Made by a program: the position numbers and the translations under genes. The notes under the pieces were generated by a model that worked only from the letters and a program-made list of their open reading frames with translations, made no database searches and was not told the DNA's origin. This document shows positions 15,882 through 58,269 of a stretch of 64,000 nucleotides of DNA, one piece after another. Where the stretch lies: contig CALWRA010000001.1 in the NCBI GenBank assembly GCA_944383825.1, positions 62,001-126,000 on the forward strand, in the 5' to 3' direction. This DNA is from an uncultured Acetatifactor sp. Its GTDB lineage: Bacteria > Bacillota > Clostridia > Lachnospirales > Lachnospiraceae. Position 1 is the stretch's first letter, and each line of letters starts with the position of its first letter.

Positions 15882-15960
15882 CTGTTTCGTCTCCCTGATT
15901 GTCCGGTTTTTCACAGCTCTCAGGCATCTCTCCTGAGGGCGTCTCTCTTCGTTATCATTT

Positions 15961-15988
15961 ATTTCGGTACAAACATCGGGATTCTTTA
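15961..15988 (-). promoter_or_regulatory. Possible sigma-28 (flagellar) promoter
   Basis: On the minus strand TAAAGAAT (15988-15981) is followed 17 nt after TAAA by CCGAAAT (15967-15961). The sigma-28/sigma-D consensus is TAAA-N15/16-CCGATAT, so the match is good but the spacer is one longer. It lies about 75 nt before the GTG at 15881 and would drive the DUF6240-like/flagellin/fliS operon. Confidence 0.42.
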
Positions 15989-16040
15989 CCCCATTATTCT
16001 CTACTTGTGAGGAAGAAATCAAAGCGGCAGAAAGTATTGG

Positions 16041-17945
16041 TCAAAACACAAATATTGCCGCCCCATAGGGAGGCAGATCGAAGCAGATAGAATAATCCTG
16101 ATAATGAAAAGACTTTTTCCTGGCCATAATTTCTTTAGGAATTTCATTCCCCCATCCGCCAAACCTTTCTTCATCGCTGTTCAGCAGCAAACGATATTTC
16201 TTTTTTCTGGGAACTCCCACTACGTAATTTTCACGCTTTACGGGAGTCATGTTCAGCACAAACAAAAGATTTCTGGTTTCGGAAGAGGACCTGCGCACAA
16301 AGGCGTATGTGCTGTGCTCCTCATCATCTGCATTCATCCATTCAAATCCCTCCCAGCGATTATCTATTTCATGCATGGCCGGATATTTGCGATATAGCAA
16401 AAGCAGCTCTTTCATAAATTCATGTATGCCTTTATTATACTTTTCCTGCAAAAGATACCAGTCCAGCTCTCTTTCCTCGCTCCATTCCCTCTCCTGGCCG
16501 AAGTCCTGACCCATAAACAGAAGCTTCTTGCCGCAATGTCCGAACATATAAGCGTAGCCCACTCTGAGATTTGCATATTTGTCCGCCGTATACCCAGGCA
16601 TTTTATTGACCATGGAGCACTTCAGATGAACGACCTCATCATGTGAAAGGGGAAGAATATAATTCTCACTGTCATTATAGCTCATAGCAAAGGTCAGGGC
16701 GTGATGGCAACCCTTCCGGTAAATAGGATCCAGCTTCATATACTCGCAGAAATCGTGCATCCAGCCCATATTCCACTTAAAGGCGAACCCCAGGCCATCT
16801 TCCCCGATCCCACAGGTCACATGGGGCCATGCAGTGGATTCTTCCGCTATCGTCAGAAATCCCGGATAGGTTCCCCTCACTACAGAATTCAGATGCCGGA
16901 AAAATTCAATGGCCTCCAGGTTTTGGTTGCCCCCGTATCGATTGGGAACCCATTGTCCTTCTTTTTTGCCGTAATCCAGATACAGCATGGATGCCACCGC
17001 ATCCACTCTGATTCCATCTATATGAAACTCTCTCAGCCAGAACAATACATTGGCAATCAGAAAATTTTTGACCTCCGGTTTTCCGTAATTGAAAATTTTC
17101 GTGCCCCAGTCCGGATGCTCTCCAAGCCTGGGATCCGGATGCTCATAGACGCACTGTCCGTCAAATTCCGCCAGACCGTGAGCATCCGTCGCAAAATGCG
17201 CAGGCACCCAGTCCAGAATCACTCCCACCCCTGCCTTGTGGAGCTCATTTACAAGATACATAAAATCCTCAGGAGAGCCATAGCGGGAAGTAGGAGCATA
17301 ATAACCGGTGACCTGATAACCCCAGGAGCCGTCGAAGGGATGCTCGGCAATCCCCATTAGCTCAATATGGGTGTATTTCATTTCCTTCAAATATTCCACA
17401 ATCCGCTGGGCAAATTCCCGATAGCTGTAAAACCCCTCCGTTCCATCCGGGTGCTTCATAAAGGAGCCAATATGACATTCGTATATTGCCATAGGCTCTT
17501 TGTTCATATCAAGCGCGTCGCGCCTGCTCATCCATTTTTCATCTTTCCATGCAAAACCGGAAAGGTCAGCGACCACGGAGGCTGTACCCGGACGGCACTC
17601 CGCCAGGTTGGCAAAGGGATCCGACTTGTACAGCTTCCTTCCGTCTCCTGCGGTTATCAGAAACTTATACATTGCACCCTCTTCCGCTCCAGGGACAAAC
17701 AGAGCCCAGATTCCTCCTTCTCCAAGCTTTTCCATTGGATGGGCGTCTTCCTTCCATTGGTTAAAAGTGCCGATCACATGCACCTTGACCGCATTAGGAG
17801 CCCACACAGCAAAGTAAACCCCCTCCACGCCCTCTTCACAGGATAAATGAGCTCCCAGTTTTTTATAAATATCATAATGAGTTCCCTGCCCAAAAAGATA
17901 TTGATCTGCCTCGGAAATAAAAATCCTCTGCTCTGCTTTCGCCAT
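16041..17945 (-). CDS. glgB: 1,4-alpha-glucan branching enzyme
   Basis: 634 residues, normal length for GlgB. An N-terminal CBM48-type module (YFAVWAPNAVKVHVIGTFNQ) precedes the GH13 barrel: YECHIGSFMKHPDG, the nucleophile region DGIRVDAVASMLY, the acid region IAEEST, and PLSHDEVVHLK. The enzyme makes alpha-1,6 branches in glycogen. No other glycogen gene is in the window. GGAGGCGGGG precedes the ATG, 12 bp after the TPR gene. Confidence 0.96.
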   Translation of the reverse strand: MAKAEQRIFISEADQYLFGQGTHYDIYKKLGAHLSCEEGVEGVYFAVWAPNAVKVHVIGTFNQWKEDAHPMEKLGEGGIWALFVPGAEEGAMYKFLITAGDGRKLYKSDPFANLAECRPGTASVVADLSGFAWKDEKWMSRRDALDMNKEPMAIYECHIGSFMKHPDGTEGFYSYREFAQRIVEYLKEMKYTHIELMGIAEHPFDGSWGYQVTGYYAPTSRYGSPEDFMYLVNELHKAGVGVILDWVPAHFATDAHGLAEFDGQCVYEHPDPRLGEHPDWGTKIFNYGKPEVKNFLIANVLFWLREFHIDGIRVDAVASMLYLDYGKKEGQWVPNRYGGNQNLEAIEFFRHLNSVVRGTYPGFLTIAEESTAWPHVTCGIGEDGLGFAFKWNMGWMHDFCEYMKLDPIYRKGCHHALTFAMSYNDSENYILPLSHDEVVHLKCSMVNKMPGYTADKYANLRVGYAYMFGHCGKKLLFMGQDFGQEREWSEERELDWYLLQEKYNKGIHEFMKELLLLYRKYPAMHEIDNRWEGFEWMNADDEEHSTYAFVRRSSSETRNLLFVLNMTPVKRENYVVGVPRKKKYRLLLNSDEERFGGWGNEIPKEIMARKKSFHYQDYSICFDLPPYGAAIFVF

Positions 17946-17957
17946 TCCCCGCCTCCA

Positions 17958-21665: not shown

Positions 21666-22328
21666 CTATTGATTAAAAAACCGCATAACTTCCGTCAGAT
21701 CCCTGCAGACAAGGAGGCAGAGCCTTTTAATTTCTTCGTCCGGCTCCACCAGATCCGGCACCATAATCGGCTGCATTCCGGCTGTAGCAGCAGCACGGAT
21801 CCCGTTGGGAGAATCCTCTATGGCGTAGGCATGCTCCGGAAGCGTTCCCATTTTTCTACAGGCAAGCAGATAAATATCTGGCCGGGGCTTGGAATGTTCC
21901 ACCATATCTCCCGATACAATCACTGAAAAATAATCAATGAGCTGCGCCTGCCTCAAATGGCTCACTACAGATTCATACCGGGAGGAAGAGGCCAGACCGA
22001 TCCGAAAGCCCCCCTGCTGCAGGTAAGGAAGCAGTTTTTCTACTCCGGGTTTTAAGGGAAGCCCGTTCTTTTGAATTTCCTCCCGAAACCATTCCGAAAC
22101 CTTCCTCCGAAACTCTTCATATGGAAACGCCTGTCCCGGGAAACGTTGCTCCCATGCTTCCAGCACCAATGTCTTTGTGTCATTATCATTCAGCCCGATG
22201 CAGCGTCTGGACACCTCCTCTATTCCCTCTATGCCTCTCTCCTTTGCCGCTTTTTCCCAGCATTGGATGCACAGTCTTTCCGTGTCAAACAATACGCCAT
22301 CCATATCAAAAATCACAGTTTTATTCAT
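21666..22328 (-). CDS. HAD-family phosphatase (beta-phosphoglucomutase-like subfamily)
   Basis: 220 residues. Motif I is FDMDGVLFDTE (nucleophile and acid Asp), motif II lies in GLASSSRYESV, and motif III/IV are KPRPDIYLLA and AIEDSPNGIRAA. A helical cap between motifs I and II gives the subfamily I layout of small phosphosugar phosphatases and mutases; the substrate cannot be told. Its ATG overlaps the stop of the DHHW gene. Confidence 0.92.
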   Translation of the reverse strand: MNKTVIFDMDGVLFDTERLCIQCWEKAAKERGIEGIEEVSRRCIGLNDNDTKTLVLEAWEQRFPGQAFPYEEFRRKVSEWFREEIQKNGLPLKPGVEKLLPYLQQGGFRIGLASSSRYESVVSHLRQAQLIDYFSVIVSGDMVEHSKPRPDIYLLACRKMGTLPEHAYAIEDSPNGIRAAATAGMQPIMVPDLVEPDEEIKRLCLLVCRDLTEVMRFFNQ

Positions 22329-23442
22329 AGTATTGAAAATCCTCCAGAAAATGAATACAGTTATAGACTACCAGCACATCCATACCCTCCTCCGGTTCGC
22401 AGCTCGCCATAAGATTGTATAGACTTCCGTTGAAATATCTCAAATCCACCACATATATCTTGCTGTAATGGGGTGTTAAAAGCGGAATCAGACTGTTGGC
22501 ATAGGAATCCTTTATCACAAACAGCGTCCCTTTGCTACGATAACTCGTGTCAATGCTCGTAAAAGCATGATTATCGTCCAGAAAAAAGCCGTATTTATTT
22601 TTTGTATCCAAATAGCCCTTCTCATAATAGGAAGCCGCAGCTTTTTCAAAATCATAGACGATGGACACAGGACGCTTTATCGTCTCCGGGAAATAGCTGA
22701 TCCTCTCCCCATCCATAGGAATATTCAGACGGGAATGTAAAGTTCCCAGGAAATCATCCGAAGCGGTTCTCATTCCCGATACATTATAGTCATAGGGCTC
22801 CTCCCCGGCGGCCTGGGCCCACGCAAGATAACCATAATATGCACCAAGACTGGTCCAATGGTGATCCGTCCGATAGTAAATCTCCTCTCGGGAATGCTCC
22901 TTCAGGGCAGTATATACATCTATATAATGTCGGCTGCCAATCCTCTGTGCCACATAGGCAAGCAGTTGGGTCTGATCATAGAAAGACGCGTTTGCCGGAA
23001 GCTTATCCGTAATAATATTGTCTGCCGTAGGTATCAGCATGACTGTGGCATTCCAGTCCTCTGTCAGTTTTTCCAAAAGAGCCACTTTTTTCCTTTCCTG
23101 GGCACCGGAATATTCCTCTGGCAGGTGCTGCTCTATCAGATACCCATCCTCCCCAAGATACACTCCGTTAATGTCCTTTTTTTGCAGCAGAATATCGCTT
23201 TTCGTCTTTATACCAATCCATTTGTCCCTTCCCACAAACTGATCCGTAATGTATTCTTCATATTCAGCGCCATACTCACCGCTCTTTATACCCTCCTCCG
23301 TCATCTCGGGTTTGGAGGCAAGTACGCGGTTCTCTGTCTCGGAATAAATTCTGTCGCTATGAAACATATCGGCCACAGTAATCACAAGCAAAATGGCGCA
23401 AACCAGACCGATGGTCAAAATCGCGTTCCTCTTTTCATCCAT
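22321..23442 (-). CDS. DHHW-family (AlgX/AlgJ-like) SGNH-type protein
   Basis: 373 residues with one N-terminal membrane anchor (about 8-27). The motif RTDHHWTSLGAYYGYLAW (about 190-207) defines the DHHW family, related to alginate O-acetylases AlgX and AlgJ; the Asp-His pair is the predicted catalytic element and LFVIKDSYANSLIPLL fits the serine block. It is expected to transfer acyl groups onto an extracellular polymer using groups moved across the membrane by the adjacent MBOAT. GAAGGAGG precedes the ATG, 15 bp after the MBOAT gene. Confidence 0.87.
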   Translation of the reverse strand: MDEKRNAILTIGLVCAILLVITVADMFHSDRIYSETENRVLASKPEMTEEGIKSGEYGAEYEEYITDQFVGRDKWIGIKTKSDILLQKKDINGVYLGEDGYLIEQHLPEEYSGAQERKKVALLEKLTEDWNATVMLIPTADNIITDKLPANASFYDQTQLLAYVAQRIGSRHYIDVYTALKEHSREEIYYRTDHHWTSLGAYYGYLAWAQAAGEEPYDYNVSGMRTASDDFLGTLHSRLNIPMDGERISYFPETIKRPVSIVYDFEKAAASYYEKGYLDTKNKYGFFLDDNHAFTSIDTSYRSKGTLFVIKDSYANSLIPLLTPHYSKIYVVDLRYFNGSLYNLMASCEPEEGMDVLVVYNCIHFLEDFQYYE

Positions 23443-23457
23443 AGCGGCCTCCTTCCT

Positions 23458-24870
23458 CTAAAATCTGAAATACAAAAAGGGATTATAGCTGGCATCCACA
23501 ATATAGGCTATGGACAACAGCAAAAGCAGAGGCGGCATTACCTTTTCTCCCAGACGGTACAGGGCTATACCCCAGCCTGTTTTGATCTTTTCCAGTTTTT
23601 TTATCATTCCGCCGGGAAAAGGCGTTGACGCGGCAATCGCCACTACAAACAGAATCAGATATTCTGTACCGAAATACAGCGCCTGCCGGTCCACTCCTAC
23701 GCCTCCAAAGCCAAACATTGCCCCAAAATATCCCCAAGCCTGACCGAGAGACTGAGAGGCAAAAAACACCCAGCCAAGAAGGACGGCAAGGCATGTATAA
23801 ATTCTCCCGAATATCTTGGGGACAGCTGCCAGAGCTCTTGCCAGAAACAGCTTTTCCAGAATCAAAAGAAAAGCAAACCAAAGCCCCCACACCAAAAAGC
23901 TCCATTCCGCTCCGTGCCAAATTCCGGTGAGCGCCCAAACGATGAGCAGATTCAAAAGCTGTCGAGGCAGGCCCTTACGGTTCCCGCCAAGAGGAATATA
24001 CACATACTCCCGAAACCAGCTGCTTAGCGAGATATGCCATCTTCTCCAGAACTCTGTAACGGAAGCCGAAATATAGGGATAATTAAAATTCTCTGGGAAA
24101 TAAAATCCCAAACACGCCCCCAGGCCAATCGCCATATCCGAATAGCCTGAAAAGTCAAAATAAATCTGGAAGGCAAAGGCTCCTATTCCCAGCCAGGCCG
24201 TCAGAACGCTGATCTCCCCATAATCCATGGCGGAAATCTCCGTCCAGAGCACACCCAGATTATTGGCAATCAAAACTTTCTTTGCAAGCCCTGCAACAAA
24301 CCGCTTGATTCCGGCGCTTATCTGATAGAGATCCGGCCTGTGACTGTGAAGCTGCTCCTCCACCTGACGGTATTTTACGATGGGCCCTGCAATAAGCTGA
24401 GGGAACATTGTCACGAAAACGCAGAAGTCCAGAAAATTTTTCTGTACCTTTGCCTCTCCGCGATAGACATCGATGGTGTAGGACATGGTTTGAAAGGTAT
24501 AAAAAGATATACCGATGGGAAGCGGAATATTCAGCAAAGGAAAGCTCGTTCCAGCCAATGAATTTACGGAGCCGATCAGGAAGTCCGCATACTTGAAAAA
24601 TCCCAGAAGAAGCAAATTTATTACCACAGAAGAGGTTAACAGAAAAACAGCGGCCTTCCTTTCGGCATACCTTGCTATCAGTATGCCATGAATGTAATCA
24701 GAAACCGTGGAAAACAGCATCAGCAATATGTACACCGGTTCACCCCAGGCATAAAAAAACAGGCTCCCCAAAAGGAGGATGAAATTTTTCATCCTCTGGG
24801 GAACCAAAAAGTAGCAAATAAAAAATATGGGCAAAAACCGAAACAGAAACAAAATACTGCTGAATACCAT
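23458..24870 (-). CDS. MBOAT-family O-acyltransferase (AlgI/DltB-like)
   Basis: 470 residues, about ten or more membrane helices. The active-site histidine lies in LTGIWHGAEWSFLVWGLW, and YVYIPLGGNRKG is the other family hallmark (AlgI type). It passes acetyl groups from cytosolic donors to an outer acceptor enzyme, here most likely the DHHW protein next door. A GGAG seven bases upstream supports the ATG at 24870. No polysaccharide synthase is in the window, so the polymer is unknown. Confidence 0.94.
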   Translation of the reverse strand: MVFSSILFLFRFLPIFFICYFLVPQRMKNFILLLGSLFFYAWGEPVYILLMLFSTVSDYIHGILIARYAERKAAVFLLTSSVVINLLLLGFFKYADFLIGSVNSLAGTSFPLLNIPLPIGISFYTFQTMSYTIDVYRGEAKVQKNFLDFCVFVTMFPQLIAGPIVKYRQVEEQLHSHRPDLYQISAGIKRFVAGLAKKVLIANNLGVLWTEISAMDYGEISVLTAWLGIGAFAFQIYFDFSGYSDMAIGLGACLGFYFPENFNYPYISASVTEFWRRWHISLSSWFREYVYIPLGGNRKGLPRQLLNLLIVWALTGIWHGAEWSFLVWGLWFAFLLILEKLFLARALAAVPKIFGRIYTCLAVLLGWVFFASQSLGQAWGYFGAMFGFGGVGVDRQALYFGTEYLILFVVAIAASTPFPGGMIKKLEKIKTGWGIALYRLGEKVMPPLLLLLSIAYIVDASYNPFLYFRF

Positions 24871-24882
24871 TCTTACGCTCCA

Positions 24883-25563
24883 TTAATGCTCTACATTGCG
24901 GCTCAGAATTTCAATCGCCAGCTCGTTCTGCTCCTGACATTGTGTGATAACGGCTTCATCGCCGCTTTCAGAGGCCGCTGTGGTATCAGCGCCAAGCTGC
25001 ACAAAACAGACATAGTCCCCGAGCCTTTCGATTCTGGAGGCTTGAATCTTCCCGAGATTCATTGGATATTGTGTGGTATTGTTAATCAGATTGTCCCGGT
25101 ATTCGTTCAAGGCTTCCTCTACTGCATCTACCTTATCACTTTTTGCTTTGATAATCAATAAAGTATCTACATTTGTGCTGATCATTGGCATTTCGCCCAT
25201 ATAATCCTCATACAGATCTGAAGTGATACCGAAGGTTCCTTCCAACATTTCCGGAGTAATAGCCGTGTTGGGCCAGTAATTTTCTCCAAGGGCTTCTGCC
25301 ACGGCATCCCGCAAAGCCGTCATTTCCTCGCTCCAGCCCTCCGCCAGATCCATGTTTGTCTCCGATGTCTCATTTTCCTCCTGTGTAGAGGACAGACCCG
25401 TCTCCGGCGCCGGAGATGTTTCCGTTTCCTGAACGGCTGTAGTTTCCGCTCCGCCCTCAGCAGTCTGCTGGGCGGACTGATCTGAGCTTCCATTGTTGTC
25501 CCCGCAGGAAGCCAGGACAAGCGTCATGACCCCCACACTGAGTAAAACCGATAATTTTTTCAT
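24883..25563 (-). CDS. DUF4358 lipoprotein
   Basis: 226 residues. The lipobox LVLASC (Cys about 20) follows a signal peptide, then a Ser/Thr/Glu-rich linker to about residue 75 and a DUF4358 domain (GITSDLYEDYMGEMPMIST, NTTQYPMNLGKIQASRIERL). DUF4358 lipoproteins recur beside MBOAT/DHHW pairs in clostridia, so it is likely a surface partner of the acylation system; its exact role is unknown. AAGGAAGGAG precedes the ATG, and it appears to be the first gene of this operon. Confidence 0.88.
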   Translation of the reverse strand: MKKLSVLLSVGVMTLVLASCGDNNGSSDQSAQQTAEGGAETTAVQETETSPAPETGLSSTQEENETSETNMDLAEGWSEEMTALRDAVAEALGENYWPNTAITPEMLEGTFGITSDLYEDYMGEMPMISTNVDTLLIIKAKSDKVDAVEEALNEYRDNLINNTTQYPMNLGKIQASRIERLGDYVCFVQLGADTTAASESGDEAVITQCQEQNELAIEILSRNVEH

Positions 25564-25719: not shown

Positions 25720-28700
25720 CTACGATTGATCCTGTTTCTTTTTATACACCACTACGCCCGCCACCGCTGCCACCGCGATGACAACGGCCAGCAGTACAAA
25801 GAGTAGGACAGGATTTTGGCCATTAGACGCAGGTTCTTGCGCTTCTTCCACAGGAGCTTCTCCGTTCCGGGCCTCCGGCGCTTCTTTTTCCTCCGTCTCG
25901 GGTACAGCAGTCTCCTGTGCTACATTTTCCACTACCGCATAGATGCTGAAATGGTCTGTCTCAAACACCACATCTTCATTTTCCAGCCTGAAATCCAGGG
26001 CCTCCGCGTTTCCTTCATCATCCACATAATATACGCTCAGATTATCTCGGTCATAGCCTGTGGGCGCTGGGATTCTGACCTCCACCATGCCATAAGGCTG
26101 TACCGGCTCTCCATTCAGCAAAAGCGTAATGTTGAAAGCAGCAATCTTTTCTCCCAAAGCCTCAAGATCCGTTGCTGCCTCCTGGCCTTCAGCCAGCTCC
26201 GCAATAACCACGGAAAGTTCCCAGGTATCCTCCATATTTCCATGAAGCCGGATGCCTGTTTCCTCGTGTCTTTTTGTAACCATTTGGCTGACTGCAAAGG
26301 CTTCTGTCTCAGAAGCCGCCGCCACAGTATATGGTCTCCTTGCTGACATGGAAGCAGCGTTTCTTGCCGCAGCGGACCCCTGAAGCTGTTCACTTGTGTC
26401 TGTTCCCGAACCTCCCTGTCCTGCAGATGACGGCGTCTGGGGTGTTCCTCCCCCGTCAGGCTGCTGGATTTCGCCGGGGTTCACTGGCTCCTGAGGCTCT
26501 CCGGGGTTCACCGGCTCCTGGGGCTCTTCGGGGTTCACCGGCTCCTGGGGCTCTTCCTTTCCCTCAATCTTGAAGCTTACGGTGGCCGATGCGCCTCCCG
26601 CCTCAATGGACGCCGTGTACTCTCCAGGCTCCACAGGCGCTCCGGAAATCTCCTCTTCTCCTTGTCTGTAAATCACACTCAAGTTGTCCAGACCATTGGC
26701 TGTCCATTCATGGCTGAAAGATAAAACTGCCTCCTTCTCGCTTCCGTCATACTTTGTATTTGCAGGAGAAGTCAGCATAGCCCTTCCAAGGGTTTCTCCA
26801 CAAACGCTGCAAAAGCCTTCCAGACCGACGCTATCCGTCAGGCTGCGGTAGGAAACCGTATGACTGTGCACCGCCACCTCTAAAGCGCCGATACTGGGTG
26901 TGTCGGCTGCAATCACATTTCCCAGCATATCACGGGTCAGCTCCAGTCCATCGATCTTCTTACCTCTCCCCTCCACCATAGTTTTATTCTGGGGAATGTA
27001 ATTAGCCGCCCGCTCTCGAAGAATCCTCAGAGGATCCTGCTTGAGATCCTCCACGGAAGCCAAGTTTCTCGTGCCCTCCGCAAGTCCTTCTTCATGATCT
27101 TTGTACGCTTCAGGGTTGGCCATCTGTGCGTCCCCGTAATAATTGCCGGGCCAGCTGACATCAGTAATTCCAAAGTCTCCCTCCTTGGAAAACAGATTAT
27201 TGGTGATGGTGGAACCGGGGGCAATACCAACGTTTGATTTTGAAAATTTCAGCCCCGTCACTCCCTCTTTTACATCCACAATATTGTTCATAAAAATCAC
27301 ATACTCTGCACTGTTTCTGGTATTCATGCTGGAGAACAGATATGTGTTATCCTTTACTATATAAATAGTATTATTGTATACAATAGGCGCTCCATTCACC
27401 GTTCCGTTGTTACTGTGATCCTGAAATACCTCCTGATTATTGCCCCAGGCATCGGCGGCGGAAATATTATATCGGAACACAGTGTTTCTCTGACTGCTCA
27501 TTAAAAGCAGGGCGCCACCCTGATTATTATGGCTATAATTATACTGGAACACCGAATTATAGCAATTGTTGTCCGCATCGAAGGCCTGACCATCCGTCTG
27601 TCCGTAGACAGTGCCGTAAATTTCATTGTACTGGAACAAAACATCTGTTGCATAATGAGTCCACGCTGCGGCGTAATATACGCTGTTCAGGTTGATGGAG
27701 GCGGAACCGTTCACCACATTGTATTCCACAACGCCGTTTTCCGCATTTTCCTCGAGGACAATTCCATCTCCCAGCGTATCTTCAATATAATTGTTGTTTA
27801 TGGACACGTTCCTGTTATTCCTGTTATAGCCGGTGCTGTAATTTCCCTCCACCTTTGTACGGATTCCTTCGTGCATGGTCCGCCATACGGTATTATACTG
27901 CAAGGTCACTCCATCAAAGCCGGCCTGGTTGTTGGTAGCGGGCGCTTGACTCTGTCCCTGAGGATTCCTGAACTCTGCCAGGGCAATGATCCCTCCTGAC
28001 ATTTTCGGGCTGGCGTTGGCTACGCTGTCGGTCGTATTTGACACCACATCATGCACATAGCAGTTTTCCACCGTCAAGTCTTTCATCAGCTGGCTCTGAT
28101 CATATGTATACAGATAAATGCCCGCTCTTACATACTGCTCGTTATAACGCGTTCCATAACTCTGTCCCGCTCCGTAATTCGTTATTTCAAAATTACTGAT
28201 TTCCCAATAGGATTGGTTTACCAGCATAATGGTCGCACTGTAAAGACTGTAGCTGGTTCCCCCGCCGTTGATCAGGGGTCTTCCAGCCGCTTGGATATCT
28301 CCATAGGAGCTGAGCACGATGGGCCTTCCTTCATCCCCGTTTCCTCTGGGCCTCAGGTATCCGTTCCAGATTCCCCCCGCTTCAAACAAAATTTTATCCC
28401 CCGGCCGGAACTCCATGGCGTTTACCTTATCCAGAGTGCTCCATGCCTGATCCGGCGAAGTCCCTGTATTGGCATCGTTTCCGCCGTTGCTCACATAATA
28501 GGTCTGCCCTGTATAGGTCAGGTCATATCGCACCGTTACCTGCGCGGTCACTGTAATATCCGGATAGGAAATCAACCTTCCCTGGACCTGAAAGGAACCA
28601 AGATCTGCATAGGAAGATTCAGGTATGAAATCCCACAGAACCTTTTCCATACCGACGGCTCCGGTCTTGTAGGCCACCTCCACCTCGGCGGGAAGTACCG

Positions 28701-30477
28701 GAGGTTCTCCCAGGCTTACCTCTATCTCCACATCGGCCACGCTTTTTATCATGGGCGCCACTCTCGCAATCAGAGCGGGCTTTTGCACATTATCCCTTGT
28801 TGTTGTAGATGCAAAAAGGTCATGCTGATTATTCGCCGCCTGTGTGTCTATGGAAAACACAAAGGAAAGCTCTGTGTTTCCTTCCTCCAGCGCTGCAGTC
28901 ACAGCCTCCGTCACATCCACCTCATAAACATAGCTGGGATAGTCCAGCTGCACCGTATTTACACGGTTCTGGGCCGTCACGGTCACGGCAGTTCCCACGC
29001 CGGCAGCCATGGCGTTCTCCAGTCCGTCCCACGTCAGCGTGTCTCTCGTCCAGCCATCCAGGGTAAAGGTCTGGATTTGAAAGGAACTAAAATCCGCCCC
29101 GGGATTGTTCTGTTCTCCGTCGTGGGTCTGAAAGGTCAAAACATACTGATCCTTTCCCTCCCTGTCCAGATTATTCAGATCAAATCTCATCGCGATTCGT
29201 CTGGTATACGTTAAATTGGAGCCATCCGTGGTTTTCAGACGCAGCCGATCCTGCAGCTTCGAAGCCATGCCGGACATCAGGATCTGTCCGGTCTTTCCTG
29301 CATCGCTTCCTGCCTGTACGTAGGTATCCGCCTCAGGATAAGCCGTGGATGAGGTATTCTCCTGTACCGTTACATACATGGTGACCCCTCCGCTATACCC
29401 GTCCACGGTTCCCGTAACCGTATAGGTTTTAATCTCATTCGTATTCACTGCCTGAAGTTCTGTGGAATTCCATGTGACGGGGGCCTTTCCGGTGCCACCC
29501 TCCAGATACTCCACAGATACCTCCGTAGGCGGCTGAAATATCTCTCCCCGGCCTACCGCACAAAGCACATCGGGTACGCGGCCGATGGTCTTCTTCACCG
29601 GTTCCATTATGCTGAGCTGGGGATGCTTTTCTGAATCAGACTCCGCAAGGCTGCAAATATTCACACCATTATTAGCGACGCGCGTCTCAATAAACAGGCA
29701 GAAGGTAATCCTATCCTTCGAACCTGCCACAGCAGTCTTGACCATCTCCGTAACGTCCACCATTATCTTATCGCCCGCATTCGCCGAGTTGTTTTCAGCT
29801 GCTCGGCCCAGGGCTGCATCTGCCTGCTGGGACACCGCAGGAGCGCCAGCGCTTCCTATGTCTGCGACATCTCCGCCGCTCACTGTCGTTATCATAGCAG
29901 CATCTCCGCCGCTCACTGTCGTTGTCGGAACAGCTACAGCGGCATTCAGCTCAGGCACGGAACTTGCCGTCAGCGCGTTCTGGCCTGCTGCCTCCAGATA
30001 AAATGCCTTGGCATCCGCAGGCTTACTGTTCGCAAGCCAATCGGCATAGGTCTGAGATGTGTTCACCGCATCCATATCCCCGTCAAAAGTTCCCACATAA
30101 TACGGATTCGCATTGCTGTAATTATTATCCTTGTCTCGAATTGTCAGCTCCAATAAAGCCTGTCCTACCTCGCTCTCGTTGTTAATGGAGCTTATGTCAA
30201 ATTCTATATAGGCTCTCCTGTTGTAATTTTCCTTATCAGAAGCATTGCTGTTGCTATATTTGACACGTAGATAGCCCTCATCGGCAGCAAACCGGGAAGC
30301 CGTCTTCCCGCTCATATTTCCCTGCACATAGCCGTTTCTGACAGCCGTCAGTGTCTGGGAACCATCCGCCGCTCGGGCACGCATTTCCCGTCCGATAGGG
30401 GCGGCACCCAAAACCAAAGCCATGCTTAACCCCAAGGCCAGCCATGCTTTGCATCTTTTCCTTCCTGCCTTTTTCAT
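25720..30477 (-). CDS. Giant secreted right-handed beta-helix surface protein 1
   Basis: 1585 residues. The start at 30477 has AAGGAG six bases upstream; the open frame to 30582 is not needed. A signal peptide (about 1-36) leads to two CBM96/DNRLRE-like beta modules alternating with two Big_4-type Ig-like domains, then a long parallel beta-helix (YYVSNGGNDANTGTSPDQAW, NNNYIEDTLGDGIVLEENAE, many N-N-x-Y/I turns). Then come an Ig-like module, a Pro-rich stretch of three 9-residue PQEPVNPGE repeats, a C-terminal domain shared with beta-helix protein 2, and a final membrane helix with KKKQDQS. There is no LPxTG. It could be an adhesin or a glycan-active protein. Confidence 0.85.
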   Translation of the reverse strand: MKKAGRKRCKAWLALGLSMALVLGAAPIGREMRARAADGSQTLTAVRNGYVQGNMSGKTASRFAADEGYLRVKYSNSNASDKENYNRRAYIEFDISSINNESEVGQALLELTIRDKDNNYSNANPYYVGTFDGDMDAVNTSQTYADWLANSKPADAKAFYLEAAGQNALTASSVPELNAAVAVPTTTVSGGDAAMITTVSGGDVADIGSAGAPAVSQQADAALGRAAENNSANAGDKIMVDVTEMVKTAVAGSKDRITFCLFIETRVANNGVNICSLAESDSEKHPQLSIMEPVKKTIGRVPDVLCAVGRGEIFQPPTEVSVEYLEGGTGKAPVTWNSTELQAVNTNEIKTYTVTGTVDGYSGGVTMYVTVQENTSSTAYPEADTYVQAGSDAGKTGQILMSGMASKLQDRLRLKTTDGSNLTYTRRIAMRFDLNNLDREGKDQYVLTFQTHDGEQNNPGADFSSFQIQTFTLDGWTRDTLTWDGLENAMAAGVGTAVTVTAQNRVNTVQLDYPSYVYEVDVTEAVTAALEEGNTELSFVFSIDTQAANNQHDLFASTTTRDNVQKPALIARVAPMIKSVADVEIEVSLGEPPVLPAEVEVAYKTGAVGMEKVLWDFIPESSYADLGSFQVQGRLISYPDITVTAQVTVRYDLTYTGQTYYVSNGGNDANTGTSPDQAWSTLDKVNAMEFRPGDKILFEAGGIWNGYLRPRGNGDEGRPIVLSSYGDIQAAGRPLINGGGTSYSLYSATIMLVNQSYWEISNFEITNYGAGQSYGTRYNEQYVRAGIYLYTYDQSQLMKDLTVENCYVHDVVSNTTDSVANASPKMSGGIIALAEFRNPQGQSQAPATNNQAGFDGVTLQYNTVWRTMHEGIRTKVEGNYSTGYNRNNRNVSINNNYIEDTLGDGIVLEENAENGVVEYNVVNGSASINLNSVYYAAAWTHYATDVLFQYNEIYGTVYGQTDGQAFDADNNCYNSVFQYNYSHNNQGGALLLMSSQRNTVFRYNISAADAWGNNQEVFQDHSNNGTVNGAPIVYNNTIYIVKDNTYLFSSMNTRNSAEYVIFMNNIVDVKEGVTGLKFSKSNVGIAPGSTITNNLFSKEGDFGITDVSWPGNYYGDAQMANPEAYKDHEEGLAEGTRNLASVEDLKQDPLRILRERAANYIPQNKTMVEGRGKKIDGLELTRDMLGNVIAADTPSIGALEVAVHSHTVSYRSLTDSVGLEGFCSVCGETLGRAMLTSPANTKYDGSEKEAVLSFSHEWTANGLDNLSVIYRQGEEEISGAPVEPGEYTASIEAGGASATVSFKIEGKEEPQEPVNPEEPQEPVNPGEPQEPVNPGEIQQPDGGGTPQTPSSAGQGGSGTDTSEQLQGSAAARNAASMSARRPYTVAAASETEAFAVSQMVTKRHEETGIRLHGNMEDTWELSVVIAELAEGQEAATDLEALGEKIAAFNITLLLNGEPVQPYGMVEVRIPAPTGYDRDNLSVYYVDDEGNAEALDFRLENEDVVFETDHFSIYAVVENVAQETAVPETEEKEAPEARNGEAPVEEAQEPASNGQNPVLLFVLLAVVIAVAAVAGVVVYKKKQDQS
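26474..26556. repeat. 27-bp tandem repeats, three copies, inside beta-helix gene 1
   Basis: Three near-identical 27-bp units encode PVNPGEPQE-type repeats in the stalk of the surface protein. The units differ by only one to three bases, so copy number may vary between strains. Confidence 0.75.
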
Positions 30478-30535
30478 TTCCCACTCCTTTTCCTTCTCTT
30501 CCAAATCATTGGGAGCAGAATACATCCCCAAACTT

Positions 30536-31528
30536 TCACAGCTCTTCAAGATTTTGCATTCTCTGCTCCACAGCTTTCTCATATTGCTCTCTTATCAAAT
30601 AATTTCTCACCAGATCTTTCGAAGACTCAAAGTCACCTCCCTGCCTTTCTATTTCGCGTACCCTGCAGACGCTGGGCAAACCTGCAAATTCCCCTCGAAA
30701 TATATCCCCTTTCTCATGTGAAAACAGCTCTGTCAAAAGTGTCTGCGTAAACATATCATCTCTGCCCACATCCTTTGTGGAGACCTGGGTTTTTGTCAAG
30801 ATTTGCAAATTCAGCCCCTCTCTGACATCCGCAATATCTTCTCCACGTCTCCACGCTTCATAGACAGCGTCAAGCGCATCCTCTAACAGAATAGAATCCG
30901 TTTCCCCGGGATTGAAGCAATAGCATATATCCACAGTCGCCTGAAGATCCCCTCTCATAGCCACCCCGGTTATATCCATTCGCCCGTAAGCCTCCCGCAG
31001 CTGATCCTCTGTGAAATCAAATTCATTTTCCGCCATGTATCTTAAGAGTTGATTTTCCAGATCCTGATAGAGATATAAGAATAAGCTCTCCTCCGTCCAG
31101 CGGGTCATACCGTAGCCTGTTGGACCTGTTCCCGCTTCATTCAGCTCCGCAGCCCTTTGCTGTAGCGCCTCAAAGCCTTCCCACACTGGAATTCCTCTTT
31201 CCTCTGCCAACGAACGAACTGACACATATCTTACAATTGCTTCTCTGGTCAGTTCATTGGCATATTCTTCTGCCGTAAGCCCTTCTTCATTGGGTGTCTG
31301 CCAGCCTCGTTCACCTTTCGACACATCGATTCCATATTCCGCATAAAAATCTCCGCTTGCACGAGCCTTCTGCATGTCATAAAAAAACTCGTATTCCTCG
31401 CCGCTGACTACATACTCCCCAATCCTCATACTGTTTCGAGACCAGAGGCCACATCCTGTGCATAAAAATGAAAGCCAAAAAAGCAGTGACAACACAGTGA
31501 AATAACGAAAACTCGGATTTTTAACCAT
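30536..31528 (-). CDS. SurA/PrsA-like foldase lipoprotein 1
   Basis: 330 residues. The lipobox LCTGC (Cys about 26) anchors it outside the membrane. The helical N-terminal domain (GEYVVSGEEYEFFYDM, LTREAIVRYVSVRSLAEERG) resembles SurA_N/PrsA chaperone domains, and the segment from about residue 190 lies where a parvulin isomerase would be but its usual motifs are poor. It ends 58 bp before the giant beta-helix gene, so the two are probably co-transcribed and it probably helps fold that protein (inference). A second pair at 39582-44805 repeats the arrangement. Confidence 0.72.
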   Translation of the reverse strand: MVKNPSFRYFTVLSLLFWLSFLCTGCGLWSRNSMRIGEYVVSGEEYEFFYDMQKARASGDFYAEYGIDVSKGERGWQTPNEEGLTAEEYANELTREAIVRYVSVRSLAEERGIPVWEGFEALQQRAAELNEAGTGPTGYGMTRWTEESLFLYLYQDLENQLLRYMAENEFDFTEDQLREAYGRMDITGVAMRGDLQATVDICYCFNPGETDSILLEDALDAVYEAWRRGEDIADVREGLNLQILTKTQVSTKDVGRDDMFTQTLLTELFSHEKGDIFRGEFAGLPSVCRVREIERQGGDFESSKDLVRNYLIREQYEKAVEQRMQNLEEL

Positions 31529-31592: not shown

Positions 31593-31621
31593 ATTATAGC
31601 TTTTCACTTTTTTTCTGTAAA
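31593..31621 (-). promoter_or_regulatory. Sigma-A-type promoter for foldase/beta-helix cassette 1
   Basis: On the minus strand TTTACA (31621-31616) and TATAAT (31598-31593) are separated by 17 bp, one base from consensus in the -35. Transcription should start near 31586, about 58 nt before the foldase ATG. Confidence 0.68.
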
Positions 31622-39581: not shown

Positions 39582-42500
39582 TTATTGTGATTTTTTCTTT
39601 TTCCAAAAAACGATTCCTGCCGCAGCCAAAACAATCACCACTATGATCAAAATGATAGCTGCAGAAAGCCAATCTCCGTTTTCATTCTGCTCCGTTGGCG
39701 CTTGAAGCTCCTTGTTTTCCGTTTCCCCGGATGTCTCACGGCTTTCAGCGGTATCCGAAGTGTTTTCCTGTTCCTGAGCGTTTTGCACCTGTTCATTTTC
39801 CACAACTGCATACACGCTGAAATGGTCTGCGTCAAACTCAACGTACTCTCCTGACAGTCGGAAAGCAATACTTTCATGATTACCTTCATCATCAATATGG
39901 TATACGCTCAGAAGATCTGGATTATATCCTTCGGGCACTGGAATTTTTACCAAAATGCTATCCGACGGCTGAACGGGTTTCCCGTTAAGCAATAAGGTAA
40001 TGTCAAACGCCCTATAGCGTTCTCCCAACGCATCAAGAGATGTCTTTACAGGCTCAGCGATGTTTTCACTCTCCTTGATTTCCACAAGCAGCTCCCACGA
40101 ACTCTCCATTGCTCCTTCCAGCACAATTCCTGTAGCCTCGTCCTGCTTGGTAATGCTGACGGGCACTCGTTCCATGCTGCTCATCAAAGTCCCAGAATTT
40201 CTCAGTGAATCCCTACTTTGTGTCTGTCTGTTTGTAACAGGCCAGGTATTGCTTTGCTCTAAAGAGCCGGAGACATTATTCTGACCTGTTCCGGTATCTG
40301 TACCTCCTCCCGTGCCGCCTGAAGAGGAACCTCCACTTCCTTCTCCGGAGGTATTCCCATTATTTCCCGGGCCGGAAGTGTTTCCGCCTTCTCCCTCACC
40401 GGGACTGTTCCCTTCTCCTCCTCCGGGAGCGTTTCCATCCTCTCCTCCAGGAGTGTTTCCATCCTCTCCTCCAGGAGTGTTTCCATCCTCTCCTCCAGGA
40501 GTGTTTCCATCCTCTCCTCCAGGAGTGTTTCCATCCTCTTCTTCGCCTGTAGTCTGTTTGTTTGTCATAAAGCTTATTTCCACGTAATCCGACCTGTTTC
40601 CGGCTGTATCCACGGCGCAGATTCTAAGTGTATATTCCGTACCGCTTTGCAGCCCGTCCAAAGTCGCTTGTGTCTTAGCTCCTGCCGTCTGCGTTAAAAG
40701 AACATCTCCATGATAAATTTCATATCCTTCCACTCCAACATTATCCGAAGCGGCGCTCCAACTGATTATGACGCTGTTTTCGGTAATACCGGAAACCTGA
40801 GGAGTCCCCGGAGCGGCAGGCGCCTGAACATCCTTCTTGGTAGAAAAGCTTACCGACGCCGGAGTGGATTTATTTCCTGCCGCGTCAAGAGCAATCAGCT
40901 CCAGATTATACGCATGGTCGGGCTCAAGTCCATTCAGTCTGACCTGGCTTGCGCCGCCTCCCACGCCGGCAAGGCGTGTTCCCTGATGGTACAGCTCATA
41001 TCCTGTCACTTCCCGATTGTCCATAGAAGCCTTCCACGTCACAAGGGCGCTGGTTTCTGTAATATCCTGTGCCTCTACCTCAGATGGCACGGAGGGCGCT
41101 TCAATATCCTCTACCTCCTCATTCAGATAAGTAATAATGGGAGTTGCATATATACTGGGAGCGTTGGGATTATTTTGAGCCGCAGCCCTCAAACGTATCC
41201 AGTCTCCTTTCTGTACCGTAAGCTCTGCTTCTGGGAAGTTTCCCTGCACGTTCATCTGACTCATTTCACAGGATTGTATCAGATTCTCGTTCAGATACAG
41301 GCCAAGCTCCACGCTCCCCGCGGTATTATTCTGTCTTAAAAACGGCTCGTCCGCTTTCAGCTCAAAGGTAACCTTCCCGCTCATAGGCGCACGAAACGCC
41401 ATAAAAACATAAAATCCGTCATCCGCCGTAAAGTCCACAATCAGCCCGTGGCTGGACTCGGTCACACTGCCCTTTGTTCCTTGCGCCCCCACATTGTCCC
41501 AGCGGTTGCTTGCAATTTCCCAGGTTGCATACTGGCTGGAATAATTTGTAAAGTTTACATACTCGCTGCTTCCATCCTGATACTGGGCAAACCAGACATT
41601 TCCCTGCTGCTCATCTACATAATCCCTCGTCCAATGATACTCATTTTTGATCCGTATGGTATAATTTTCCTGCGTTATTCCATCTTCGGCCAGAACTCTT
41701 AAGGTCATTCCATCCTCCAGAGCTCCGGAAATCACTTCCTGGTTCCCTTTCCGCACAGCTGCAGATGCCGTGTCGGCAATGGTAATTCCACTCAAAAGGC
41801 TTCCCGGCGTACAAGGATTATTAGGGGTGGAAGGCACATATATTTCATTTCCCTTCACCATAAAAATGCTCTCATAGAGGGTGGCGTCATTATCGGCCAG
41901 AATTGTGTAGCTGATGGTCTGTCCCCCGTGAGAAAGCGTCACTGCCATTCCCGGCTTTACAATGTCTTCTTCCCCCAGCTTTGAAGCTCCGTCCATCACG
42001 GCAATTTCCACGCCGGAATCATAAACCAGATTTTCCAAAAGCTGGCTTACTGTAGTATTTTTCTCCAGTCCTGCAATGGTGTTTTGCTGTCCGATTCCCT
42101 TTGTATCCACCGTATAAACTCTGGAGGTAATTAACAGGGAGACCTCATCGCTTTCCGCTGCTCCTATCTCGGGCACGGCGCCGATTTTCCTTCCAAAAAA
42201 GTCTTTTTCCGGCACAAATCCATTGTCATCCACGATTACCTTGCCCTGGTTGATAGCCTTGGAGCCTTCCGCAAGCAGGTATCCTTTCCACACGCTTCTG
42301 TCATACACTCCTGGTCCGTTTGCAACGGGCGCACTGGGGGCTTTTCCCGGATCTGCAAATACCGCTTCTCCTGCATTGACGCGAATGGGATTCGTGTCTG
42401 TGTCAGGCACATTTGTATAATTATAGTACAGATTATTGTCATAGGTCAGACGGTTGTTGGGCCTCCAGGTTTCATTTCTGGGCGAAGAGCCGCTGTAATA

Positions 42501-44021
42501 AAAAATATTATTCTCAATTTTTCCGGCTCCGGTATTCATATCCGGCCTGATAACCGGAACATTTTCTTTCATATAAAACGTATTATTGTAAATATGCGCA
42601 TCAGGGTTATTCGGCACATTCAGCACACCAATCAAATCATTCTGACTGATATTATAGCGGAATGTACTGTTTACCGCCTGTTGCAGGCAGAACATTACAG
42701 CGCCACCCGTATTGCCGCTGCTGTAATTATATTGATAAAGAGTACCGTCCCCCGAATCTGCATCCCATGCCTGTCCGTCTCCGTTGCCCTGTCCGGCATT
42801 CAATGTGTCATAGCATTCATTGTATTGAAAGAGGGCATCCTTGCATTTCCATGGCCAGATAGCGGCAGCCACACGTCCAAAATCCGTGCTTTTGTAATCG
42901 GTAAGATTAATCTGTCGTGCAGCATCCACGGATACATTGTGCTCTACCAAAGGCCTGTAACAGTACATTGTGGTGATAGAATCTCCGCCTGCAGCGTCTA
43001 TATAATTATTTCTGATTACCACATCCGTATTTCCATAGCGCATACATATTTCATCACTGATTTCCGCTGCGGAAAATTTATCGGAGTGCGCCCCGGTATA
43101 GGCTGCCGCAATTCCCCACCTGTTCACATTGGCCACATGACAGTTTTGAATTACCAAATCGTGGAATCTGGGAATTCCCGTCTGTCCCTCATTGGCGGGC
43201 TTTGCCATGATAAAATAAATTCCGCCGTTTACCATATGCTTATCGTAAACGTTGCCCACCACATCATGAATATAAAGATCATCCAAAACAATATGTTCCA
43301 GAGTTCCTCTATTCTGTGCAACACCTGCCACCCCCGTCCTGTTCATTACATTTGGATCGTTATACTGCAGATTAGCGCCTGTGGGATTCTCCTCATCTCT
43401 GTTGCTTCCTCCCTGATTGGTAATTTCCAGACCGCTGATTTCTATGTACTCCACATCATATAAAAGGATAGCGGTAGATACCCAGCCCCTATATTTATGC
43501 CTGACATTATCAAGCTGCTTTCCATAGTCCTGATACCATTTACCAGTTCCGTTGGTGTTGATCACCGGCTTGTTTCCAGAACCATAGGTTCCTATAATGA
43601 CTGGAGCGCCCTCTGCTCCGCCTTCATTTTCCAGATGCAGATACTGACTGTCAAAAACAGATCCTCTCTCCAGAAGCACCTGATCGCCCGGGCCAAGAGT
43701 CAGCTCATTGATCTTATCCAGAGTCCGAAAGGGCTTATCCTGGCTCATTCCATTATTTTGGTCATTCCCATGAACTGAGCTGACATAATAAGTGGTTCCC
43801 ACCGTAGCCTTTAAAAGCATGTTGGCACTGACAGACATATTTCCGCTGACAGTATTATTCCCGCTGACAGCGGAGCTTTCTTTTACCGACGAGCCGACAT
43901 TTTCAAGCTGCGCTCCCCTTACCGAAGCAGGCGCAAGCAGCATGGCAGCAATTAAAATTCCCGACAATCTCTTTCTCCATTCATGGCTCTTCCTTTTTTT
44001 TCTAATAAATGCTATTGCCAT
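39582..44021 (-). CDS. Giant secreted right-handed beta-helix surface protein 2
   Basis: 1479 residues from the ATG at 44021, which has GAGGAGGAAAA just before it. Signal peptide (about 1-37), then a Ser/Val-rich SAVSGNNTVSGNMSVS stretch, a long parallel beta-helix (YYVSSVHGNDQNNGMSQDKP, LVIQNCHVANVNRWGIAAAY), cadherin-like/unassigned beta modules, two fibronectin type III domains (SALVTWKASMDNREVTGYEL, SVIISWSAASDNVGVEGYEI), a Gly/Glu/Asn/Pro repeat stalk and the same C-terminal domain as protein 1 (ITLLLNGKPVQP, DHFSVYAVVEN), ending in a membrane helix plus KKKKSQ. Confidence 0.85.
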   Translation of the reverse strand: MAIAFIRKKRKSHEWRKRLSGILIAAMLLAPASVRGAQLENVGSSVKESSAVSGNNTVSGNMSVSANMLLKATVGTTYYVSSVHGNDQNNGMSQDKPFRTLDKINELTLGPGDQVLLERGSVFDSQYLHLENEGGAEGAPVIIGTYGSGNKPVINTNGTGKWYQDYGKQLDNVRHKYRGWVSTAILLYDVEYIEISGLEITNQGGSNRDEENPTGANLQYNDPNVMNRTGVAGVAQNRGTLEHIVLDDLYIHDVVGNVYDKHMVNGGIYFIMAKPANEGQTGIPRFHDLVIQNCHVANVNRWGIAAAYTGAHSDKFSAAEISDEICMRYGNTDVVIRNNYIDAAGGDSITTMYCYRPLVEHNVSVDAARQINLTDYKSTDFGRVAAAIWPWKCKDALFQYNECYDTLNAGQGNGDGQAWDADSGDGTLYQYNYSSGNTGGAVMFCLQQAVNSTFRYNISQNDLIGVLNVPNNPDAHIYNNTFYMKENVPVIRPDMNTGAGKIENNIFYYSGSSPRNETWRPNNRLTYDNNLYYNYTNVPDTDTNPIRVNAGEAVFADPGKAPSAPVANGPGVYDRSVWKGYLLAEGSKAINQGKVIVDDNGFVPEKDFFGRKIGAVPEIGAAESDEVSLLITSRVYTVDTKGIGQQNTIAGLEKNTTVSQLLENLVYDSGVEIAVMDGASKLGEEDIVKPGMAVTLSHGGQTISYTILADNDATLYESIFMVKGNEIYVPSTPNNPCTPGSLLSGITIADTASAAVRKGNQEVISGALEDGMTLRVLAEDGITQENYTIRIKNEYHWTRDYVDEQQGNVWFAQYQDGSSEYVNFTNYSSQYATWEIASNRWDNVGAQGTKGSVTESSHGLIVDFTADDGFYVFMAFRAPMSGKVTFELKADEPFLRQNNTAGSVELGLYLNENLIQSCEMSQMNVQGNFPEAELTVQKGDWIRLRAAAQNNPNAPSIYATPIITYLNEEVEDIEAPSVPSEVEAQDITETSALVTWKASMDNREVTGYELYHQGTRLAGVGGGASQVRLNGLEPDHAYNLELIALDAAGNKSTPASVSFSTKKDVQAPAAPGTPQVSGITENSVIISWSAASDNVGVEGYEIYHGDVLLTQTAGAKTQATLDGLQSGTEYTLRICAVDTAGNRSDYVEISFMTNKQTTGEEEDGNTPGGEDGNTPGGEDGNTPGGEDGNTPGGEDGNAPGGGEGNSPGEGEGGNTSGPGNNGNTSGEGSGGSSSGGTGGGTDTGTGQNNVSGSLEQSNTWPVTNRQTQSRDSLRNSGTLMSSMERVPVSITKQDEATGIVLEGAMESSWELLVEIKESENIAEPVKTSLDALGERYRAFDITLLLNGKPVQPSDSILVKIPVPEGYNPDLLSVYHIDDEGNHESIAFRLSGEYVEFDADHFSVYAVVENEQVQNAQEQENTSDTAESRETSGETENKELQAPTEQNENGDWLSAAIILIIVVIVLAAAGIVFWKKKKSQ
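40427..40545. repeat. 24-bp tandem repeats, about five copies, in beta-helix gene 2
   Basis: A 24-bp unit (on the plus strand GTGTTTCCATCCTCTC plus CTCCAGGA) repeats almost perfectly and encodes GGEDGNTP units of the stalk. It has no spacers and is in frame, so it is not a CRISPR array. Confidence 0.85.
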
Positions 44022-44037
44022 TTTTCCTCCTCTTAAC

Positions 44038-44805
44038 CTATTCTCCATACCATTTCCGAATTTTCTCCAAGGTTACGTCGTACAGTTTTCCTTCATCAAT
44101 CCATACCTTCAGCCCCTCTTCATATTCCGCAATCAGCTCCCTGTATCTCTCCTTCTGCAGCGCAGCATCCACTACGCTCTGAATTTCGTCCAGCTGAGGT
44201 TCCGAAAAGCCGTCAGGCCCCGTCCACTCATTGTTTCTGAAATATTCTTCCCTCTCCTGCTGAGAAATCTCCAGCTCCTTATTATTCTTGTCATTCAAAA
44301 ACTGTTGTTCCAGCGCTTCCAGTTCATAGCTGATATATTGCTCCAAGGAAAATTGCGTCAATCCGTATACAATTTGTCCCTGCTCCAGACTTTTCTCCCG
44401 TTCTTCATTTTCGTTACGCCATCGTTCAAGCAACGCCTCATAGCCGTCATCTCCCACATACCCCCTTTCTTCGGCCAATTTATAAACAGCTCTCCTGTAA
44501 GCAAGAGCTCTGACTGCGTGATCCATCATTATCCTGACGGGGTTCTCCCCTTCGTATTCGGTTTCCCATTCGTCCAGCGTTCCCAGCGCTGTACTGTATT
44601 TTTCCAAAAAATACTGAGAAACGCTGAATCTGGTTTCTTCCATGATCTGAAAATATTCTTCTTCACTCACCTCCTCACCGTCTATCTTCATAAATGAGCC
44701 GCTGCCGCCTTGAATAAAGCCGACAATAAGCACAGCTGCCACAATTATTACGATTGCTGACGAAGCCAGCACGATTGATTTTTTCATCCTTCCGCACACC
44801 CGCAT
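44038..44805 (-). CDS. SurA-like membrane-anchored foldase 2
   Basis: 255 residues. An N-terminal membrane helix (about 9-31, no lipobox) is followed by a helical domain with the SurA_N pattern (KIDGEEVSEEEYFQIM, MDHAVRALAYRRAVYKLAEE). The C-terminal half has no parvulin motif, so it looks like a pure chaperone. It ends 16 bp before beta-helix gene 2 and repeats the layout at 30536-31528. The ATG at 44805 has no clear ribosome site; an in-frame ATG at 44787 is also possible. Confidence 0.66.
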   Translation of the reverse strand: MRVCGRMKKSIVLASSAIVIIVAAVLIVGFIQGGSGSFMKIDGEEVSEEEYFQIMEETRFSVSQYFLEKYSTALGTLDEWETEYEGENPVRIMMDHAVRALAYRRAVYKLAEERGYVGDDGYEALLERWRNENEEREKSLEQGQIVYGLTQFSLEQYISYELEALEQQFLNDKNNKELEISQQEREEYFRNNEWTGPDGFSEPQLDEIQSVVDAALQKERYRELIAEYEEGLKVWIDEGKLYDVTLEKIRKWYGE

Positions 44806-58252: not shown

Positions 58253-58269
58253 CCGGAATCCTATTCCGG
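58253..58269. terminator. Shared hairpin between convergent lacI-type and cotH genes
   Basis: CCGGAAT-CCT-ATTCCGG is a perfect 7-bp hairpin starting 2 bp after the regulator stop and covering the cotH stop codon. On the minus strand a T-rich TTTAAAACTTTTT follows. Confidence 0.66.

What the first reader, a model, noticed from the sequence alone, without database searches (positions are those of the whole stretch)
30477..31528. Foldase plus giant beta-helix exoprotein: cassette 1 of a repeated two-gene module
A SurA/PrsA-like lipoprotein with poor isomerase motifs ends 58 bp before a 1585-residue secreted beta-helix protein (gene body 25720-30477). The same pair occurs again at 39582-44805. 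Both exoproteins share a C-terminal domain (ITLLLNG-PVQP, DDEGN, DHFS-YAVVEN) and a C-terminal membrane helix with a Lys tail instead of LPxTG. This suggests a dedicated chaperone-client export system with its own anchor.
Basis: partly seen in the sequence, partly recalled or inferred. Interest (0 to 1): 0.74.

Follow-up and report, generated by a model that had tools for sequence, protein, structure and literature searches.

The report
Two glycosidase–foldase pairs, one divergent
A gut bacterium carries two copies of a known kind of surface sugar-cutting enzyme that is made together with its own folding partner; one copy is the familiar milk-sugar enzyme and the other an unstudied branch whose partner still looks like the general protein-folding helper from which such partners seem to have evolved.

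Summary
The gene pairs are real, and cassette 2 is a known kind. Cassette 2 (39582-44805) matches the GH136 lacto-N-biosidase LnbX (666 bits) and its required partner LnbY (145 bits). Cassette 1 (25720-31528) is a divergent GH136-type pair. Its beta-helix keeps both catalytic aspartates (D962, D969) but has His where ErLnb136 stacks galactose on Trp548. It groups with Cuneatibacter and Hungatella proteins, far from the lacto-N-biosidases.

The 330-aa protein F1 models as a SurA/PrsA foldase (pLDDT 87) with a parvulin domain lacking both active-site histidines. Across relatives, the LnbY-like subunit exists with and without a parvulin domain; the forms without it are not one clade (AU p 3e-5), so the domain was probably lost repeatedly. 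Enzyme and partner co-diverge (Mantel r 0.65, 0/5000).

The "own anchor" claim fails. The shared C-terminal domain occurs in 39 of 299 family genomes, and outside the window no strong LnbY-like gene was found beside it. Foldase linkage follows the beta-helix instead.

The tandem module is therefore known (GH136 subunits I and II). What looks new is the uncharacterised branch and the SurA/PrsA ancestry of a subunit described as having a "previously unknown fold". Substrate and activity are untested.

The parts
30536..31528 (-). F1, 330 aa: LnbY/GH136I-like subunit, long form with SurA/PrsA architecture; possible lipoprotein
   Evidence: AF2 model pLDDT 87.2; Foldseek hits SurA 2pv3/9hg5 and PrsA 4wo7 at E 1e-5 to 1e-7; phmmer to F2 3e-7; NCBIfam LnbY weak, 17.5 bits
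30641..30949 (-). degenerate parvulin-like domain inside F1 (residues 194-296)
   Evidence: beta-alpha pattern in the model; long-form relatives hit Pfam Rotamase_2 above cut-off here; both active-site His absent
31593..31621 (-). promoter-like site TTTACA-17-TATAAT upstream of F1
   Evidence: 11 of 12 consensus match; pattern only
25720..30477 (-). exoprotein 1, 1585 aa: signal peptide, DNRLRE/CBM96 and Big_4 modules, GH136-like beta-helix, C-terminal domain, membrane helix with Lys tail
28771..29349 (-). CBM96/DNRLRE module (residues 377-569)
   Evidence: Pfam CBM96 2e-11, NCBIfam DNRLRE 1.2e-18
26833..28515 (-). GH136-like right-handed beta-helix of exoprotein 1 (residues 655-1215)
   Evidence: PDB 6kqs 3.6e-23 and 7v6m 1.9e-22 by sequence; model pTM 0.90, Foldseek 7v6i/5gqc/7v6m/6kqs 1e-18 to 1e-25
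27571..27594 (-). catalytic motif DGQAFDAD: D962 (acid/base) and D969 (nucleophile) equivalents of ErLnb136 D568/D575
25720..26265 (-). shared C-terminal domain, membrane helix and Lys tail of exoprotein 1
   Evidence: 48% identity to exoprotein 2
44038..44805 (-). F2, 255 aa: LnbY-type GH136 subunit I, short form without parvulin domain
   Evidence: NCBIfam LnbY 3.1e-42
39582..44048 (-). exoprotein 2, 1488 aa: GH136 LnbX-type lacto-N-biosidase with fn3 domains; likely start near 44021
   Evidence: NCBIfam LnbX 1.4e-199; PDB 7v6m 1.5e-192
42150..43811 (-). GH136 beta-helix of exoprotein 2 (residues 80-633)
42756..42779 (-). catalytic motif DGQAWDAD (D424, D431)
39585..40139 (-). shared C-terminal domain, membrane helix and Lys tail of exoprotein 2

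Best explanation
Both cassettes encode two-component GH136-type surface glycosidases. The small protein is a SurA/PrsA-derived foldase that has become a dedicated partner (GH136 subunit I, LnbY) of one secreted beta-helix enzyme (subunit II, LnbX). Inferred steps: the foldase meets the Sec-exported beta-helix at the outer membrane face, is needed for it to reach an active fold, and probably stays bound along its side so that its loop borders the active site, as seen in ErLnb136. Cassette 2 is a lacto-N-biosidase pair feeding lacto-N-biose to the genome's GH112 phosphorylase. Cassette 1 is a retaining glycosidase of an uncharacterised branch, with a substrate other than an unmodified lacto-N-biose end, and its partner keeps a catalytically dead parvulin domain. 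The C-terminal domain and membrane helix are an ordinary, separate anchoring module.
For: Family matches to LnbX and LnbY and GH136 structures. Both catalytic Asp are invariant across the aligned branch. Models: beta-helix 1 to GH136 structures, F1 to SurA/PrsA. Linkage: 22 strong partner genes (E<1e-40) in 18 of 299 family genomes; 20 lie beside a GH136-like beta-helix gene, and the other two are on contigs of genomes whose beta-helix gene runs off another contig's end. All 18 genomes are among the 29 with such a beta-helix. Co-divergence: Mantel r 0.65, 0/5000. Published precedent: activity only on co-expression of both subunits, with subunit I packed on the beta-helix and its Tyr145 near the active site (PMC7335108). 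GH112 plus ABC transporter genes in this genome.
Against: No activity, complex or localisation was tested. Only 52 of 128 GH136-like beta-helix domains had an adjacent or fused partner by my criteria; no partner was detected in the Bacteroidota members, so it is not needed throughout the superfamily. Neither window pair reaches NCBIfam's equivalog cut-offs (2500 and 400 bits). F1 against the LnbY model alone is weak (17.5 bits).
Confidence: 0.82

Rival explanations
1. One reading: a dedicated chaperone-client export system defined by the shared C-terminal domain and its own membrane anchor.
For: Both window exoproteins share the domain and both have an upstream foldase.
Against: The domain occurs at 45 places in 39 genomes. 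Of 16 outside stretches inspected plus the third copy in this genome, only one had any foldase-like gene nearby, at the score of generic PrsA proteins. The closest relative of cassette 1 (70% identical beta-helix) has the foldase but not the domain.
Confidence: 0.05
2. F1 is a transient folding chaperone that leaves once the beta-helix is folded, not a lasting subunit.
For: LnbY was first described as a designated chaperone (cited in PMC7335108). F1 keeps SurA/PrsA architecture and a membrane or lipid anchor of its own. Crystals of LnbX, BsaX and TnX are listed with the beta-helix chain only.
Against: In ErLnb136 the domain is fused, buries about 1618 A2 and lines the active site; RhLnb136 I and II co-purify as the active enzyme (PMC7335108).
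Confidence: 0.3
3. Cassette 1 beta-helix is a non-catalytic adhesin or a polysaccharide lyase rather than a glycosidase.
For: Large modular surface protein; weaker fold similarity to PL6 and PL9 lyases; the galactose-stacking Trp is replaced.
Against: Best structural matches are GH136 enzymes by many orders of magnitude; D at the acid/base column in 125 of 128 and at the nucleophile column in 121 of 128 domains.
Confidence: 0.1
4. F1 is an ordinary PrsA gene that happens to sit upstream.
For: Same fold as PrsA/SurA.
Against: The genome has separate PrsA/SurA-like genes that score far lower with the partner profile, one with both parvulin His motifs. F1's nearest relative is the partner of its nearest beta-helix relative (L036), and F1 lacks both parvulin His.
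Confidence: 0.03

Closest known systems
LnbX/LnbY lacto-N-biosidase pair of Bifidobacterium longum and TnX of Tyzzerella nexilis (GH136)
   Same: Cassette 2 has the same beta-helix (646 bits to TnX), catalytic pair, WPW motif and short partner.
   Different: Cassette 2 has fn3 and a different C-terminal module; its activity is untested. Cassette 1 is only distantly related and lacks the galactose-stacking Trp.
ErLnb136 of Eubacterium ramulus and RiLe(a/b)136 of Roseburia inulinivorans (GH136)
   Same: Two parts, I and II; catalytic aspartates align with D568/D575. The R. inulinivorans partner (L107, very probably the RiLe(a/b)136 locus) is also a long form with a Pfam Rotamase_2 match.
   Different: ErLnb136 is fused and its subunit I has no parvulin domain. 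Cassette 1 lies in a different clade from both.
SurA and PrsA foldases
   Same: N-terminal helical domain, inserted parvulin domain and C-terminal helix in F1.
   Different: F1 lacks both parvulin active-site histidines and is tied to one client gene; F2 has no parvulin domain.

Membership tests
GH136 (subunit II) | right-handed beta-helix like LnbX/ErLnb136 | tested here: met
   cassette 2 by sequence; cassette 1 by sequence and model
GH136 (subunit II) | catalytic Asp pair D568/D575 (ErLnb136) | tested here: met
   both cassettes
GH136 (subunit II) | adjacent or fused subunit I | tested here: met
   both cassettes
GH136 (subunit II) | assignment by CAZy curators | not testable with these tools
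   no CAZy/dbCAN library on hand
GH136 lacto-N-biosidase activity class | Trp548 that stacks galactose of lacto-N-biose | tested here: not met
   cassette 1 has His941 at the aligned position; cassette 2 has Trp
GH136 lacto-N-biosidase activity class | release of lacto-N-biose from lacto-N-tetraose | not testable with these tools
   needs enzyme assay
NCBIfam LnbX equivalog (NF047897) | full-length score of at least 2500 bits | tested here: not met
   cassette 2 666 bits, cassette 1 89 bits
NCBIfam LnbY equivalog (NF047894) | score of at least 400 bits | tested here: not met
   F2 145 bits, F1 17.5 bits
SurA/PrsA foldases | SurA_N-like helical domain plus C-terminal helix | tested here: met
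   F1 model; for F2, the N- and C-terminal profile segments
SurA/PrsA foldases | parvulin domain between them | tested here: met
   F1 only; F2 lacks it
Active parvulin isomerases | two active-site His (H146 and H239 in S. aureus PrsA, PMC2678132) | tested here: not met
   F1 lacks both; this genome's PrsA-like L180 has HIL and YHI
LPXTG sortase substrates | LPXTG sorting domain | tested here: not met
   no NCBIfam LPXTG hit above cut-off

The most novel reading that the evidence does not exclude
GH136 subunit I, described as having a previously unknown fold, descends from SurA/PrsA foldases. The parvulin domain still present in long forms such as F1 is inserted at the very loop that in ErLnb136 lines the active site (Tyr145), so a dead isomerase domain may have been reused as a lid or substrate-binding part of an enzyme, and was then lost several times. 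Cassette 1 would then have a new glycan specificity.
Probability: 0.35. Interest if true: 0.72.

Novelty: new variant of a known kind. Interest (0 to 1): 0.5.

Why it matters
Reviews call the origin of LnbX enigmatic and the partner's fold unknown (PMC8106489, PMC7335108). The relatives collected here show intermediates: parvulin-bearing foldases paired with GH136-like beta-helix genes. That gives a testable path from general foldase to enzyme subunit. It also indicates several uncharacterised GH136-like branches in gut and soil bacteria that would probably be inactive if expressed without their partner.

Tried and rejected
(1) C-terminal domain as the defining feature: rejected. (2) Pfam on F1 gave no hit and F1/F2 against PDB by single sequence gave nothing useful; a profile and a model were needed. 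(4) One region request was one base too long and was repeated. (5) The founding LnbX/LnbY paper PMC3757183 is not held, so its own wording on LnbY was not checked. (6) A complex model of F1 with the beta-helix could not be made, because the tool folds single chains only. (7) A single origin for partners of the cassette-1 branch was neither shown nor rejected (AU p 0.355).

Full report
What is there. On the minus strand F1 (30536-31528) ends 58 bp before a 1585-aa exoprotein (25720-30477), and the pair recurs at 39582-44805. The exoproteins share a C-terminal domain with a membrane helix and a Lys tail.

Cassette 2 is a known kind. Its large protein matches NCBIfam LnbX at 666 bits and its small one LnbY at 145 bits, and the beta-helix matches solved GH136 enzymes TnX, LnbX and ErLnb136. 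Scores are below NCBIfam's full-length equivalog cut-offs (2500 and 400 bits), so I call it a GH136 lacto-N-biosidase-type pair by domain, not a certified equivalog. The same genome has an SBP, two permease-like genes and a GH112 lacto-N-biose phosphorylase on another contig.

Cassette 1 is a distant relative. Its beta-helix hits 6kqs at 3.6e-23 and its model (pTM 0.90) has 7v6i, 5gqc, 7v6m and 6kqs as best PDB matches. Locus L064 carries ErLnb136 numbering exactly, which allowed residue transfer: D962 and D969 take the places of D568 and D575, while the galactose-stacking W548 is His in cassette 1 and Met or His in most of its neighbours. In a tree of 53 domains cassette 1 and the lacto-N-biosidase clade separate with full support. 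Relatives of cassette 1 occur in Hungatella, Paenibacillus, Enterococcus, Lacticaseibacillus and Bifidobacterium [indicum], which argues against a milk-only substrate.

The partner. F1's model (31 sequences, pLDDT 87.2) shows an N-terminal helical domain, a parvulin-like domain at 194-296 and a C-terminal helix, and matches SurA and PrsA. The profile of the partner family hits HP0175, SurA-like proteins and PrsA by sequence, and several long-form partners pass Pfam's Rotamase_2 cut-off. F1 lacks both parvulin histidines. Partners come as long forms with about 100 inserted residues and short forms with none. On a tree built without the insert columns the short forms are spread (five changes, at least three forced by well supported branches) and one clade of them is rejected (p 3e-5); with PrsA-like outgroups all long, repeated loss is the simplest reading. 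The insertion point falls between ErLnb136 residues 142 and 143 in the profile alignment, next to Tyr145 in the alpha6-alpha7 loop that borders the active site. That the inserted domain sits over the active site is an inference from alignment only.

Linkage. In 299 family genomes 29 hold GH136-like beta-helix matches and 18 hold strong partner genes, all within those 29. Twenty of 22 strong partner genes are next to the beta-helix gene, upstream or downstream; the other two lie on contigs without it, in genomes whose beta-helix gene is cut at another contig's end. Two genomes carry a further gene beside the partner that is a discoidin-type protein, with a PIG-L deacetylase domain where it was tested; in the intact one it lies between beta-helix and partner. 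Partner and enzyme distances correlate (r 0.65 over 37 pairs, 0 of 5000 permutations); shared ancestry alone contributes to such a correlation. Counting all 128 domains collected, 52 have a neighbouring or fused partner, and Bacteroidota members show none.

The anchor. The C-terminal domain occurs at 45 places in 39 genomes. Sixteen outside stretches and a decayed third copy in this genome were read; one had a PrsA-level gene 1.5 kb downstream. Cassette 1's closest relative lacks the domain. So it is a general surface module, not part of the foldase system.

Known and new. Two-part GH136 enzymes, their dependence on the partner and an active-site contribution are published (PMC7335108; PMC8106489). 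Not found in the papers I could read: the SurA/PrsA ancestry shown by parvulin-bearing partners, their repeated parvulin loss, and the branch to which cassette 1 belongs. The 2013 founding paper and the later crystal-structure papers on LnbX, BsaX and TnX were not read, so priority is not certain.

Noticed in passing
L075:472-2883 (genome contig C38): A third copy of the C-terminal domain in a LamG-type exoprotein interrupted by in-frame stops, so apparently a decayed gene; no foldase gene seen nearby.
   Followed up: partly
L049:7932-9842 and L064:7574-9565: Partner and beta-helix are fused in opposite orders: beta-helix first in L049, partner first in L064.
   Followed up: partly
L161:5622-13446 and L160:495-4344: A discoidin-type protein (with a PIG-L deacetylase domain in L161) adjoins the LnbY-like partner gene; in L161 it lies between beta-helix and partner, and in L160 no beta-helix gene was found on the stretch read.
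   Followed up: partly
L054, L060, L062: One partner gene followed by two tandem GH136 beta-helix genes.
   Followed up: no
L099, L117, L120-L122, L126 (Mucilaginibacter, Sphingobacterium, Pedobacter): GH136-like beta-helix proteins in Bacteroidota with no detectable partner gene.
   Followed up: partly
window 22321-25563: DHHW/AlgX-like, MBOAT and DUF4358 genes, an apparent polysaccharide O-acetylation set just downstream of cassette 1.
   Followed up: no
window 13008-20666: A 1004-aa DUF6240 protein and a 902-aa protein with no Pfam match flank a glycogen-branching-type enzyme near a flagellin gene.
   Followed up: no
window 58261-59715: A CotH kinase-like protein.
   Followed up: no
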